Shown here: in pieces, positions 222-34,475 of the stretch
Numbering within the stretch: the stretch's first letter is position 1
Layout: the number at the start of each line of letters is the position of its first letter
Assembly: GCA_022563755.1 (NCBI GenBank)
Contig: JADFMT010000005.1
Coordinates: forward strand, 1-37,788
Direction of reading: 5' to 3'
DNA from: Patescibacteria group bacterium
GTDB taxonomy: Bacteria > Patescibacteriota > Minisyncoccia > HO2-45-28
Length of the DNA: 37,788 bases
The notes under the pieces: generated by a model
The model's database searches: none
What the model was told of the DNA's origin: nothing
What the model saw: the letters and a program-made list of their open reading frames with translations, nothing else
Translations under genes and position numbers: made by a program

Positions 222-224
222 TTT

Positions 225-344
225 ATGGCAAAACGAAGTACAGGAGTAGGAAAGAGAAAGAAGTCGCGTTCAAAAAAGACCAAAAAACGGCTTGCGATAA
301 AGCATGAAATGTTGGCAAAGCGGGCCAGCAAAAGACGCAAATAA
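225..344 (+). CDS. Very basic 39-aa microprotein, copy 1 of 3
   Basis: The frame encodes MAKRSTGVGK followed by a Lys/Arg/Ser-rich tail ending KASKRRK-like (here RASKRRK). It is too short for the ORF track. Two close paralogues lie at 3012-3131 and 9355-9471. DNA identity runs through long stretches, including synonymous sites, which indicates recent duplication or gene conversion. More than half the residues are K, R or S, there is no membrane segment and no cysteine, so binding to RNA, DNA or ribosome is the natural guess. I do not recognise the family. It resembles short basic ribosomal proteins only in composition. Confidence 0.7.
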   Translation: MAKRSTGVGKRKKSRSKKTKKRLAIKHEMLAKRASKRRK

Positions 345-2970: not shown

Positions 2971-3011
2971 TTGGATTAATTCAGTAGAAAATTATGTTAA
3001 GATAGTTGTAT

Positions 3012-3131
3012 ATGGCAAAAAGAAAAACAGGAGTGGGGAAGATGAAGAAGTCGCGTTCAAAAAAGACCAAAAAACGGCTTGCGATAAAGCGTGAGATGTT
3101 GGCAAGAAAGGCCAGCAAACGGCGCAAGTAG
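3012..3131 (+). CDS. Very basic 39-aa microprotein, copy 2 of 3
   Basis: This copy encodes MAKRKTGVGKMKKSRS and ends KASKRRK. It differs from copy 1 by a few substitutions and has its own upstream sequence with TAAGAT as a possible -10. Identity with copy 3 runs past the stop codon (TAGATCTATTT in both), so the duplicated unit is larger than the reading frame. It sits between TypA and the sugar dehydrogenase. Proximity to a ribosomal GTPase gene would suit a ribosome-linked role, but the other two copies lack such neighbours. Confidence 0.7.
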   Translation: MAKRKTGVGKMKKSRSKKTKKRLAIKREMLARKASKRRK

Positions 3132-9284: not shown

Positions 9285-9351
9285 ATTGGCAACGAGGACG
9301 ATTGAAAATTTATTTTCAGTTCGTCCGAGCGAACCAATTATACGAAGTATA
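9285..9351. mobile_element. Palindromic insertion between promoter and gene (about 67 nt)
   Basis: Arms beginning ATAATTGG (9282) and ending CCAATTAT (9341) fold into an imperfect hairpin of about 28 bp per arm with the inner stem GGACGA..TGAAAAT/ATTTTCA..TCGTCC. Copy 1 of the same gene has the identical flanks, GTGTATAATTATA on the left and T-T/C-T-ATGGCAAAACG on the right, with nothing between. The comparison defines an insertion of about 67 bases, with boundary uncertainty of a few bases because of the shared TATA. Confidence 0.75.
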
Positions 9352-9354
9352 TCT

Positions 9355-9471
9355 ATGGCAAAACGAAGTACAGGAGTAGGGAAGAAGAAGTCGCGTTCAA
9401 GAAAGACCAAAAAACGGCTTGCGATAAAGCGTGAAATGTTGGCAAGAAAGGCCAGCAAACGGCGCAAGTAG
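9355..9471 (+). CDS. Very basic 38-aa microprotein, copy 3 of 3
   Basis: The product starts MAKRSTGVGKKKSRSRK and ends KASKRRK. The ORF track starts it at 9286, but the extra 23 codons are translation of the inserted hairpin. The ATG at 9355 aligns with the starts of copies 1 and 2. It carries a one-codon deletion relative to the others. Whether the insertion silences it or simply gives a longer leader is unknown. It runs convergently with nothing and precedes the ATP-grasp gene by about 200 bases. Confidence 0.7.
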   Translation: MAKRSTGVGKKKSRSRKTKKRLAIKREMLARKASKRRK

Positions 9472-18934: not shown

Positions 18935-19026
18935 GCCGATTTGACCCCGTTAGACAAAATCGCATTGCGGCTATGAACCCCGTTAAGCAAAATATCATTT
19001 TGCTTAACGGGATTGACAAATTTTAG
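18931..19026 (+). CDS. 31-aa frame made of palindromic repeat sequence, coupled to the ligase gene
   Basis: The ATG overlaps the ligase TGA (ATGA). The peptide contains DPVRQNRI and then MNPVKQNI...LNG, i.e. the translation of a half element and a full CCCGTTA hairpin. Frames beginning MNPVRx are a recurrent by-product of such repeats in CPR genomes. It is probably not a selected gene, but it would be translated through coupling. Confidence 0.4.
   Translation: MSRFDPVRQNRIAAMNPVKQNIILLNGIDKF
18979..19011. repeat. CCCGTTA palindrome, compact form
   Basis: CCCGTTAAGCAAAAT pairs perfectly over 15 bp with ATTTTGCTTAACGGG around ATC. A partial second copy, ACCCCGTTAGACAAAAT, lies just upstream at 18944-18960. 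Its right edge is one base from the -35 of the next promoter. This is the loop-less member of the family found at 23832, 32001 and 34393. Confidence 0.85.
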
Positions 19027-23827: not shown

Positions 23828-23962
23828 ATGAATCCCGTTAGAGATCAAAACCTTGTGTTTTATACGTATATCATTAAAAGTCAGAAGAGTAATAAATGGC
23901 GCATAGGTATTATCAATAATTTACGGAAATGCTCAAAGCATTTCCTATCTCTAACGGGATGA
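23828..23962 (+). pseudogene. Decayed GIY-YIG nuclease N-terminus inside an inverted repeat
   Basis: A 44-aa frame starts MNPVRD, contains FYTYIIKS and then WRIGIINNLRK, and stops at TGA. This spacing matches the first strands of a GIY-YIG nuclease (Y-x-Y-I-L-K-S ... Y-I-G-x-T-N-N-L-x-x-R). The second conserved Tyr-Ile-Gly reads WRIG, and the catalytic Arg and Glu region is missing, so it cannot be active. The frame is bounded by the two arms of the CCCGTTA inverted repeat. Its TGA overlaps the next ATG. TATACT at 23817-23822 may transcribe it. Confidence 0.55.
23832..23960. mobile_element. CCCGTTA inverted-repeat element with GIY-YIG remnant
   Basis: ATCCCGTTAGAGAT (23832-23845) and ATCTCTAACGGGAT (23947-23960) are perfect 14-bp inverted repeats separated by 101 bases. 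The right arm runs into the start codon of the ATP-grasp gene. Confidence 0.75.
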
Positions 23963-24834
23963 AAGTTTTTGATGTTGGCATCGGGTGGGCAAATCCGGTT
24001 GATCGCGTATTTATTGAAACGCTCAAACTTTTTTTAAAAAAAGAAAAACTCTCCTTTCATGAAATTACATTTGTAAATCTCACGCGCGCGTATGAGGAGA
24101 TAAGGAATGGCAAGATTCATTATAAAACGTTTATTGATCGCGCCTCCGAAGACCATCCCGCGTATTTGTTAATTGCTGAGAAGCTAAAAGAGCGGGGTAC
24201 TTGCGTAATCAACGATCCGCATCACGTTATCCGTTTTGCATCTAAATCGTTCTTGCATAGGCTTTTTGAGGCCGAACGTCTTCCTGTCCCCCGGACATTT
24301 GTTATCTCGCCTACTGCATCAAAAAAACTTTCAAAGAGTGTGGCAAAAACTCTGGGCATCCCGTTTGTTCTTAAGCCTTCTTATAGCGGTTTGCAGGATG
24401 TCACCTTGACCGCGCGTACGGCAGGGGACATCATGAATTTTCTCAAGGAAAACTTAACGGATGAGTGCTTGGCCCAAGAATATGTTGCGCCATCTCTTAT
24501 AAACGGTCGGACCGCATGGTTTCGGCCGATCTTTGTCTGCGGCCGCACCATTGTGCACTGGTGGGATCCGAAAAATCAGTTTTATCATTCATTTGGGAGG
24601 TCGCGAGAGGAACAAAAAATCGGAAGAGTATTGGATAACTTCATGCAAAAAATTTTTCAAATCACAGGTTTTAAGCTTTTCTCAAGCGAGGTAGCAATGG
24701 ACAAAAAAGGAAAATTTTTGATTATTGATTACGCAAACCATCCGATTGATTTAAATAGTCAAGAGATTACTCCGGACGGTCTCCCTTTAGAGACCATTCG
24801 TATGATTGCGTCAAGTATTGTAAAATCCATATAA
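23959..24834 (+). CDS. ATP-grasp domain protein, RimK-like
   Basis: The 291-aa product has the ATP-grasp layout. CVINDPHHVIRFASKSFLHRLFEAERLPVPRTFVIS corresponds to the N.....A.DK......L...G.P.P.T block. GIPFVLKPSYSGLQDVT is the ATP-binding strand and glycine loop, QEYV is the adenine hinge, and FLIIDYANHPIDLN is close to the Mg-binding end, where the classic D.NP reads DYANHP. Substrates are unknown. The track start at 23929 includes codons from the repeat; the ATG at 23959 gives MKVFDVGIG and overlaps the remnant TGA by four bases. It is unrelated by order or composition to the ATP-grasp at 9676. Confidence 0.8.
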   Translation: MKVFDVGIGWANPVDRVFIETLKLFLKKEKLSFHEITFVNLTRAYEEIRNGKIHYKTFIDRASEDHPAYLLIAEKLKERGTCVINDPHHVIRFASKSFLHRLFEAERLPVPRTFVISPTASKKLSKSVAKTLGIPFVLKPSYSGLQDVTLTARTAGDIMNFLKENLTDECLAQEYVAPSLINGRTAWFRPIFVCGRTIVHWWDPKNQFYHSFGRSREEQKIGRVLDNFMQKIFQITGFKLFSSEVAMDKKGKFLIIDYANHPIDLNSQEITPDGLPLETIRMIASSIVKSI

Positions 24835-31791: not shown

Positions 31792-32001
31792 ATGGAATTT
31801 TTTGGCTTTACCTTGGGCATGATTGGAAAAGTGATGGTGGCCTATACGGCGATTCGGGTTCACTATCGTTTTCGGAAAGAACACCGAATTGACGAGAGGG
31901 TGTTTGTTACGATGCGTCGCGAGCAGACAATCGGCATTGCAGGCATCGTCTTAATCGTGATTGGTTATACCCTAGAAGCCTCTATACGATTCTGGATATG
32001 A
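31792..32001 (+). CDS. Small two-helix membrane protein
   Basis: The 69-aa product has hydrophobic segments at about 3-22 and 46-66 joined by a basic loop (YRFRKEHRIDER). No family was recognised. The last base of its TGA is the first base of the next inverted-repeat element. Confidence 0.65.
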   Translation: MEFFGFTLGMIGKVMVAYTAIRVHYRFRKEHRIDERVFVTMRREQTIGIAGIVLIVIGYTLEASIRFWI

Positions 32002-32142
32002 TCCCGTAAGGCAATATCGAAAGCTAAATTTAGTTTCTTGCGAGGTATAATTATGTATTATTACAAGCTTATATTAATAACAGCAGATTCGAATGGTTAT
32101 TTTGGAATTTAGCAAGAAACATTCGATTTTGCTTTACGGGGT
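32001..32142. mobile_element. CCCGTTA-type inverted-repeat element filling the intergenic space
   Basis: Left arm ATCCCGTAAGGCAATATCGAA...GTTTCTTGC (32001-32041) pairs with GCAAGAAACATTCGATTTTGC...TTTACGGGGT (32112-32142). The left arm carries an extra AGCTAAATTTAG, itself nearly palindromic. The loop is 70 bases. The element begins at the stop of one gene and ends directly before the ATG of the next. Confidence 0.72.
32053..32112 (+). pseudogene. Second GIY-YIG-like remnant in an element loop
   Basis: A 19-codon frame reads MYYYKLILITADSNGYFGI and stops at TAG. It aligns in spacing with Y-x-Y-x-L-x-x-x-x-D-G-x-x-Y-x-G of GIY-YIG nucleases. TATAAT lies one base before the ATG and may instead drive the isomerase gene. 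The match is short and suggestive only when taken with the remnant at 23828. Confidence 0.4.
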
Positions 32143-33138
32143 ATGATGGATCAAGCAATTAGGGATTTTCCTAAGCAATTTGAATATGAGCCGGTTATTG
32201 AAAATGAGGATAATTTAAAACGGAAAAAACGATTTATTGTCTGCGGTATGGGGGGGTCAAACCTGTCGGCCGGTTTGCTGAAGATCGTAAACCCAAAGCT
32301 CGATATCATTTCTCATCGAAACTACGGATTACCTACCATCCAAGGACCGTCCTTGGATGCTCCAAGGACGGTCCTTGGATTTGAAGAACACCTTGTTATC
32401 GCAGGTTCCTATTCCGGCAACACAGAGGAGACTATTGATGCGTTTAACGCCGCTTTAGAAAAAGGACTTGCGCTTGCGGCAATCACAACGAACGGCAAGC
32501 TGCTCGAGCTTGCCAAAAAAAATACTGCGCCCTATATTCAAATGCCTAAAACTGGCATTCAGCCGCGTTTGGCATTAGGATTTACTATACGGGCCTTACT
32601 AAAGTTAATGGGTGACGAAGAAGGTCTGCGTCAAACTCGGACGCTTGCAGACTCTTTGGATGTTGACGGGTGCGAGTACAAAGGCAAGGCGCTTGCCGAA
32701 GTTCTTCGCGCAAAACTTCCCGTTGTGTACTCTTCTCAGCGCAATGAGCCGATTGCATATAACTGGAAAGTGAAGTTTAACGAGACCGGAAAAATCCCTG
32801 TTTTTTACAATGTATTTCCCGAGCTCAACCACAATGAAATGACTGGCTTTGATGTCTCGTCTTCTGCAAAGCCACTTTCTGAGAAAATACATTTTATATT
32901 TTTACGTGATGATCAAGATGATTCAAGGATCTTAAAACGAATGGACGCGACCAAAAAAATCTATACGGACCGGGGTTTTGGGGTTGAGGTTTTGGAACTG
33001 ACCGATGGTGATCCGTGGCAGAAAATTTTTACCTCGTTACTGATTGCGGATTGGGCCGCTTTTTATCTTGCCCGCTACTACGGCGCTGATCCCGAGCAAG
33101 TTCCTATGGTCGAGGAGTTCAAGAAACTTATAGCATAA
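32143..33138 (+). CDS. Bifunctional phosphoglucose/phosphomannose isomerase, SIS domain
   Basis: The 331-aa product has two SIS folds and matches the bifunctional PGI/PMI family. FIVCGMGGSNLSAGLL, VIAGSYSGNTEETIDA, the sugar-binding region near PRLALGF, and FPELNHNEMTGF are all family features. It interconverts fructose 6-phosphate with glucose or mannose 6-phosphate. About 14 residues (TIQGPSLDAPRTVLG) before the SGNTEE strand have no family counterpart and are encoded by a palindrome. ATGATG gives two adjacent starts. Its TAATG overlap with the ROK kinase gene indicates one operon. Confidence 0.92.
   Translation: MMDQAIRDFPKQFEYEPVIENEDNLKRKKRFIVCGMGGSNLSAGLLKIVNPKLDIISHRNYGLPTIQGPSLDAPRTVLGFEEHLVIAGSYSGNTEETIDAFNAALEKGLALAAITTNGKLLELAKKNTAPYIQMPKTGIQPRLALGFTIRALLKLMGDEEGLRQTRTLADSLDVDGCEYKGKALAEVLRAKLPVVYSSQRNEPIAYNWKVKFNETGKIPVFYNVFPELNHNEMTGFDVSSSAKPLSEKIHFIFLRDDQDDSRILKRMDATKKIYTDRGFGVEVLELTDGDPWQKIFTSLLIADWAAFYLARYYGADPEQVPMVEEFKKLIA
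32338..32380. repeat. Perfect palindrome inserted in frame within a coding gene
   Basis: ATCCAAGGACCGTCCTTGGA is followed by TGC and then TCCAAGGACGGTCCTTGGAT, an exact 20-bp-arm hairpin. It keeps the reading frame of the isomerase, adding about 14 residues. This recalls Rickettsia palindromic elements. Confidence 0.9.
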
Positions 33139-34392: not shown

Positions 34393-34475
34393 TACCCCGT
34401 TAGAAATATTTGATTACGGGGTAGTTAATACGTGTTATTATTTACTGACATAATAGCGTAATTTCTAACGGGGTA
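34393..34475. mobile_element. CCCGTTA inverted-repeat element ending on the kinase start codon
   Basis: TACCCCGTTAGAAAT (34393-34407) and ATTTCTAACGGGGTA (34461-34475) are perfect 15-bp inverted repeats with a 53-base loop. The final A is the A of the histidine kinase ATG. The loop contains a nested ACGGGGTA and a frame reading YVLLFTD, which may be a third GIY-YIG trace. Confidence 0.78.

What the first reader, a model, noticed from the sequence alone, without database searches (positions are those of the whole stretch)
32001..32142. Second CCCGTTA-type element, with a second GIY-YIG-like trace
This element occupies the whole gap between a stop and a start. Its loop contains MYYYKLILITADSNGYFGI, again of the form Y-Y-x-L ... 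D-x-G-Y-x-G. Two independent loops showing the same short pattern is hard to explain by chance in random AT-rich loops.
Basis: partly seen in the sequence, partly recalled or inferred. Interest (0 to 1): 0.7.

Follow-up and report, generated by a model that had tools for sequence, protein, structure and literature searches.

The report
Hairpin offshoot of GIY-YIG jumping gene
This 139-base DNA hairpin is a small jumping element whose ends match those of tiny (about 275-300 base) elements in related ultra-small bacteria that carry one gene, a GIY-YIG DNA-cutting enzyme, which suggests a very compact kind of transposon that lands on gene start/stop codons without breaking the genes.

Summary
The element is real: window 32003-32141, an imperfect palindrome filling the gap between a TGA stop and an ATG start. 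A 98% copy lies elsewhere in the genome, and five copies at 67-80% identity lie in three other genomes. Across these seven copies the stem is kept by changes on both sides (10 of 28 pairs). It is flanked by a direct repeat, TATGAT, and an orthologous gene start in a relative carries no element.

The peptide MYYYKLILITADSNGYFGI is not a GIY-YIG remnant. It scores no better than 3-5% of shuffles, its Y-x-G frame depends on one base missing from all five copies in other genomes, the interior shows no codon pattern, and it does not match the parent gene. The other loop (23834-23958) is a true remnant: 25.9 bits, 0/300 shuffles.

The GIY-YIG link is nevertheless right. E3's ends match autonomous elements of about 300 bp (TATG duplications) whose only gene is a GIY-YIG nuclease. 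A sister group (CCCGTTAGAG ends, about 275 bp) occurs in Patescibacteria and other phyla. Best reading: E3 is a MITE of a GIY-YIG terminal-inverted-repeat transposon that targets stop/start codons. I found no published description in the open library searched. That the nuclease drives movement is inferred.

The parts
32003..32141 (+). E3: 139-nt non-autonomous palindromic element (MITE) with ends CCCGTAAGGC..GCTTTACGGGG
   Evidence: 98% copy at G000:C8; 7-copy family in 4 genomes, 67-80% identity between genomes; 28-pair stem with 10 compensated pairs
31997..32002 (+). left copy of the flanking direct repeat TATGAT; holds the TGA stop of the upstream 69-aa ORF (31792-32001)
   Evidence: read directly
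32142..32147 (+). right copy of the direct repeat TATGAT; holds the ATG (32143) of the downstream bact-PGI_C gene 32143-33138
   Evidence: read directly; Pfam PF10432, 141.7 bits; the G003 ortholog starts ATGATGGAACAAGC with no element in front
32003..32021 (+). outer stem, left arm
32122..32140 (+). outer stem, right arm
32023..32031 (+). inner stem, left arm (an alternative inner stem GTTTCTTGC 32033-32041 / GCAAGAAAC 32112-32120 is also possible)
32105..32113 (+). inner stem, right arm
23834..23958 (+). E2: deletion derivative of a canonical GIY-YIG element; loop keeps MFYTYIIKSQKSNKWRIGIINNLRK joined in frame to ..FLSLTG; duplication TGAA at 23829-23832 / 23960-23963
   Evidence: (25.9 bits, 0/300)
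23855..23962 (+). 35-codon in-frame remnant of the GIY-YIG gene in E2; GTG start, stop overlaps the ATGA start of the next gene (ATG at 23959)
34396..34472 (+). E4: 77-nt MITE of the CCCGTTAGAAAT type, two bases before the ATG of a histidine kinase gene (34475)
18946..19011 (+). E1: 66-nt member with 4-bp duplication TTGA

Best explanation
E3 is a non-autonomous miniature element (MITE) of a family of very small bacterial transposons. The full-length members have terminal inverted repeats and one gene, a GIY-YIG endonuclease of about 85-100 aa. Shown here: E3's ends match, including the left/right asymmetry, the ends of autonomous GIY-YIG elements in related genomes; these sit at TATG and most show it duplicated; E3 has multiplied within and between genomes. 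Inferred: the GIY-YIG protein recognises the palindromic ends (as inverted repeat or extruded hairpin), cuts at ends and target with a roughly 4-nt stagger, and host repair seals the element in and fills the gap, giving the duplication. Targets are TGAN or TATG, often an overlapping stop/start (ATGA) junction, and the duplication leaves the upstream stop and the downstream start intact, so insertion in a dense genome is nearly harmless. E3 itself encodes nothing; it would move in trans, its helper being absent from this assembly.
For: Full-length elements: 52 stretches found by CCCGTTAGA plus the start of a GIY-YIG gene; most have the ORF about 10 nt inside the left end and a matching right end. 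Parents of the E3 type: L131, L133, L136, L145, L140 with ends such as TATG[CCCCGTAAGGCAAAACCGATT...AATCGGTTTTGCTTTACGGGG]TATG. In G004, G077 and G002 the MITE ends match the autonomous element of the same genome, asymmetries included. 4-bp duplications: 13/19 MITEs against 0.6 expected; 18/41 full-length elements against 5.7, maximum 12. A right end forming a start codon of an ORF >=60 aa: 27/41 against 13.8% at random positions; upstream stop at the left end: 12/41 against 2.5%. A nested MITE in L040 with duplication CCTG; joining the flanks restores the ORF ..KRFLSLTG. End type follows nuclease clade (6 changes against 21.2 shuffled; 7 against 18.1 with the TIR-coded C-terminus removed). 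GIY-YIG ORFs in related genomes are flanked by inverted repeats >=11 nt in 11/24 cases against 0.9%. Invariant Y, Y-x-G, R, H, E in 44 proteins; Pfam GIY-YIG 58.8 and 61.3 bits.
Against: No autonomous copy with E3's ends was found in the window's own assembly. E3's own duplication is TATGAT with one terminal base missing on the left, not the exact 4-bp form. Over half of the full-length elements lack an exact 4-bp duplication. No experiment shows that the GIY-YIG protein moves DNA; known GIY-YIG nucleases only hydrolyse, so joining would need host enzymes (own knowledge). E3's interior has no detectable parentage in the GIY-YIG gene.
Confidence: 0.72

Rival explanations
1. E3 and its kin are MITEs moved by some other host or transposon transposase; the GIY-YIG gene is a passenger that hitched onto the same ends.
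For: GIY-YIG nucleases are not known as strand-transfer enzymes (own knowledge); several GIY-YIG genes in the same genomes lack inverted repeats.
Against: No other gene fits in 275-300 bp; at least five unrelated end sequences all enclose a GIY-YIG gene; end type follows nuclease clade; MITE ends match the GIY-YIG element of the same genome.
Confidence: 0.15
2. The palindrome is mainly a functional RNA or regulatory hairpin in the 5' leader of the downstream gene (attenuator, terminator or start-site control), not a mobile element.
For: It lies directly before a start codon; the stem covaries in seven copies (10 of 28 pairs compensated, covariation above all 500 shuffles).
Against: Copies lie before unrelated genes, are flanked by target duplications, and the ortholog of the downstream gene in G003 has no hairpin. 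Covariation is also expected of inverted repeats recognised as a pair.
Confidence: 0.06
3. One reading: the E3 loop is a decayed GIY-YIG coding region.
For: The E3 loop reads YYxL..GYxG and scores 3.0-3.5 bits against the family profile; the motif fitted to it occurs in 0-1% of shuffles.
Against: 9-15 of 300 shuffles score as high; the other five family copies lack the frame; no DNA homology to parents (92 of 100 shuffles at least as good against E3-type parents); differences are flat over codon positions.
Confidence: 0.07

Closest known systems
MITEs (miniature inverted-repeat transposable elements)
   Same: Short, non-coding, inverted-repeat ends, target duplications, several copies, autonomous relatives with the same ends
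   Different: The autonomous partner encodes a GIY-YIG nuclease instead of a DDE transposase; the ends are long imperfect palindromes that covary; the target is a stop/start codon
UPF0213 / GIY-YIG catalytic domain proteins (PF01541; solved relative 1zg2, next SLX1)
   Same: The single gene of the full-length elements is a GIY-YIG domain protein with the conserved Y, Y-x-G, R and E
   Different: Here the gene sits inside matched inverted repeats, in some groups is partly encoded by them, and moves with target duplication
GIY-YIG homing endonucleases (free-standing or in introns)
   Same: Compact mobile GIY-YIG genes that choose short target sites
   Different: Inverted-repeat ends, 4-bp duplications, many different loci and MITE derivatives; no intron seen. 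PMC11270868 reports GIY-YIG proteins in CPR rRNA insertions that match no intron class and seem not to spread by homing
Penelope-like retroelements (GIY-YIG as integration nuclease; own knowledge)
   Same: GIY-YIG nuclease used to open the target
   Different: No reverse transcriptase here; DNA inverted repeats at both ends
IS200/IS605 and REP/RAYT hairpin elements (own knowledge)
   Same: Hairpin ends, tiny size, non-autonomous palindromic derivatives
   Different: HUH/Y1 enzymes and no target duplication there; here GIY-YIG and a duplication

Membership tests
MITE (miniature inverted-repeat element) | terminal inverted repeats | tested here: met
   E3 arms 32003-32021 / 32122-32140; 96.4% of cells paired in 7 copies
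MITE (miniature inverted-repeat element) | target-site duplication | tested here: met
   E3: TATGAT on both sides, with an atypical left border. Group: 13/19 exact 4-bp duplications against 0.6 expected
MITE (miniature inverted-repeat element) | no functional coding capacity | tested here: met
MITE (miniature inverted-repeat element) | several dispersed copies | tested here: met
   Two at 98% in this genome, five more at 67-80% in three other genomes
MITE (miniature inverted-repeat element) | autonomous partner with the same ends | tested here: met
   L131, L133, L136, L145, L140 in related genomes; none found in the own assembly
   3.0-3.5 bits, 9-15 of 300 shuffles as good; no DNA homology to E3-type parents
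GIY-YIG family PF01541 (gene of the autonomous partners) | profile match and catalytic residues Y, Y-x-G, R, E | tested here: met
   58.8 and 61.3 bits against a cut-off of 22.6; invariant Y5, Y16, G18, R26, H30, E50 in 44 proteins
GIY-YIG family PF01541 (gene of the autonomous partners) | nuclease and transposition activity | not testable with these tools
   needs biochemistry
Group I/II intron with homing endonuclease | intron RNA fold around the ORF | not tested
   275-300 bp elements hold only the ORF and inverted repeats; Rfam was not run
IS200/IS605 | HUH/Y1 transposase and no target duplication | tested here: not met
   the only gene is GIY-YIG and duplications are present

The most novel reading that the evidence does not exclude
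A new class of DNA transposon: about 275-300 bp in all, mobilised by a single 85-100 aa GIY-YIG nuclease acting on covarying palindromic ends, inserting at overlapping stop/start codons so that neighbouring genes stay intact, spread across Patescibacteria and several other phyla and accompanied by lineage-matched MITEs such as E3. If so, it would be among the smallest autonomous DNA transposons and the GIY-YIG fold would be a new kind of transposase.
Probability: 0.6. Interest if true: 0.87.

Novelty: new variant of a known kind. Interest (0 to 1): 0.72.

Why it matters
Reduced Patescibacteria genomes carry many small GIY-YIG genes and unexplained palindromes before genes. Treating them as one transposon/MITE system explains both, offers a candidate explanation for the intron-less GIY-YIG insertions and short ORF-less insertions reported in CPR rRNA genes (PMC11270868) and for transfer of GIY-YIG genes from Patescibacteria (PMC12455944), and proposes a nuclease fold not known to me as a DNA transposase. 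The codon-preserving target choice shows how a mobile element can live in a genome with almost no spare DNA. It can be tested directly with synthetic elements of about 300 bp.

Tried and rejected
Looking for GIY-YIG genes with CCCGTTA ends in the own genome: seven PF01541 matches, none so flanked. Looking for full-length elements with long fixed spacers between perfect ends: the spacer assumption was wrong because the ORF runs into the right end; one hit, not followed up. Looking for a GIY-YIG remnant in the other MITE loops of the genome: none significant apart from E2. Testing whether the E3-family frame (MPSKTKSNAKSDFLPSINMYYYQIIFKRNGRMLILGFSKKYSI) is a real micro-protein: no codon-position bias. 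Phage, plasmid and viral collections: no match in phages or plasmids; one viral contig hit against two for a scrambled tip, so no sign of viral carriage. Searches for an existing description found none; subscription journals are not held.

Full report
What is at the coordinates. The gap between the TGA stop of a 69-aa ORF (31792-32001) and the ATG of a bact-PGI_C gene (32143-33138) is filled by an imperfect palindrome, 32003-32141 (E3). Folded as single-stranded DNA it reaches -22.6 kcal/mol, z = -4.7. A 98% copy lies on another contig in the opposite orientation, again just before a start codon. Thirteen further elements with CCCGTWA tips were found in the genome, most of them 76-78 nt long, besides E3 and that copy.

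It is a mobile element. Five further relatives of E3 over most of its length, at 67-80% identity, lie in three other genomes of the class. Across the seven copies 96.4% of cells in a 28-pair structure are paired, 10 pairs have changes on both sides, and the covariation score exceeds all 500 shuffles and all slid versions. E3 is flanked by TATGAT on both sides. The ortholog of the downstream gene in G003 starts ATGATGGAACAAGC with no element in front. Among 19 CCCGTWA elements of this family's genomes, 13 have an exact 4-bp duplication one base outside the CCCG/CGGG tips; shuffled pairing gives 0.6 on average and at most 5 in 2000 trials. Reading the flanks, the pre-insertion sequence would have been TGGATATGATGG, an overlapping stop/start.

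The autonomous relatives carry a GIY-YIG gene. A scan of bacterial and archaeal genomes for CCCGTTAGA followed within about 60 nt by M[FY]YVY gave 52 stretches, mostly Patescibacteria and also Syntrophaceae, Desulfobacteraceae, Omnitrophota, Planctomycetes, Bacteroidota and others. In most of them the ORF starts about 10 nt inside the left end and runs into a matching right end, for about 275 bp in all; the stop codon is often supplied by the target (..ACGGGATGA). In 41 elements with both ends, 18 have exact 4-bp duplications (shuffled pairing 5.7, maximum 12), mostly TGAA and TGAG. In 27 of 41 the right end forms the start of an ORF of at least 60 aa (13.8% at random positions), and in 12 of 41 the left end carries the stop of an upstream ORF (2.5%). 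Bases 10-14 of the two ends agree within an element (3.46 of 5) more than between elements (2.25, maximum 2.78). In a strict-pattern survey of 380 genomes of the phylum, 4 had a match and the reversed control pattern had none.

E3 belongs to a sub-group with ends CCC(C/A)GTAWGRC. GIY-YIG genes of related genomes include its parents: L133 TATG[CCCCGTAAGGCAAAACCGATT..AATCGGTTTTGCTTTACGGGG]TATG, and L136, L145, L140 and L131. The left/right asymmetry of the ends (GTAAGGC on the left against GTAAAGC on the right in E3 and L133) is shared. In G004, G077 and G002 the MITE ends match those of the autonomous element in the same genome. The nuclease tree groups by end type: 6 changes against 21.2 with shuffled labels, and 7 against 18.1 after removing the C-terminal part that the right end encodes. 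Other GIY-YIG genes have unrelated inverted repeats; 11 of 24 have repeats of at least 11 nt against 0.9% in re-paired controls. In L040 a 98-bp palindrome with a CCTG duplication interrupts a GIY-YIG gene, and joining the flanks gives back the canonical C-terminus KRFLSLTG.

Against a profile of 44 element-encoded GIY-YIG proteins E3's loop scores 3.0-3.5 bits, matched by 9-15 of 300 dinucleotide shuffles, whereas E2 (23834-23958) scores 25.9 bits with 0 of 300. E2 reads MFYTYIIKSQKSNKWRIGIINNLRK joined in frame to FLSLTG and is a clear internal-deletion derivative. A motif fitted to E3 itself is rare in shuffles (0-1%), but that test was built after seeing the peptide. In the five copies of other genomes a one-base difference separates MYYY from the Y-x-G stretch. 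The E3 interior has no similarity to E3-type parents, and its differences fall evenly on the three codon positions. I conclude that the peptide is fortuitous while the link to GIY-YIG elements is real.

Mechanism. Shown: matched ends, target preference, duplication, copy spread, nuclease-only content, and co-segregation of end type with nuclease clade. Inferred: the GIY-YIG protein cuts ends and target, host repair completes insertion, and E3 moves in trans. The closest solved relatives by sequence are a UPF0213 protein (1zg2, E = 2e-6) and, weakly, SLX1, an endonuclease of branched DNA; this fits recognition of extruded palindromes but does not prove it. Rivals are a passenger nuclease moved by another transposase, and a regulatory hairpin.

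Known work. Within the open library searched I found no description of GIY-YIG elements with inverted repeats and target duplications in bacteria. PMC11270868 reports GIY-YIG proteins in CPR rRNA insertions that match no intron class and seem not to spread by homing, and short ORF-less insertions of unknown nature. PMC12455944 lists GIY-YIG genes among those Patescibacteria were predicted to donate to other bacteria. Both fit the present reading.

Noticed in passing
window 32338-32380: A perfect 20-nt inverted repeat, ATCCAAGGACCGTCCTTGGATGCTCCAAGGACGGTCCTTGGAT, lies inside the reading frame of the bact-PGI_C gene: a second, different palindromic insertion type tolerated within a protein.
   Followed up: no
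L005 1360-1770, L008 1440-1760, L003 1450-1820 (own genome): GIY-YIG genes without inverted repeats sit beside tRNA genes together with duplicated or related tRNA fragments (e.g. GATTGTCCACTCCGCCACCTGCGCA twice in L005), suggesting another GIY-YIG element type that inserts into tRNA genes and restores them.
   Followed up: no
L027, L030, L040, L058: CCCGTTA-tipped palindromes nested inside GIY-YIG elements of the same type; in L040 joining the flanks restores the ORF.
   Followed up: partly
L118, L121, L127, L128, L129: GIY-YIG genes flanked by unrelated inverted repeats of 12-20 bp (e.g. ATCCCCCACCTTTGCAGTTT, ACCCCGCACATAAAAC); several have TGA or TATAA right after the right end, so the class is wider than CCCGTTA.
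   Followed up: partly
own genome C3, C5, C10, C11, C32, C37, C38, C46: MITEs of the CCCGTTAGAA type are almost all 76-78 nt long although their loops differ, which hints at a fixed length requirement.
   Followed up: no
window 224-343, 3011-3130, 9351-9470: A 120-nt direct repeat in three copies (73-87% identity to the first).
   Followed up: no
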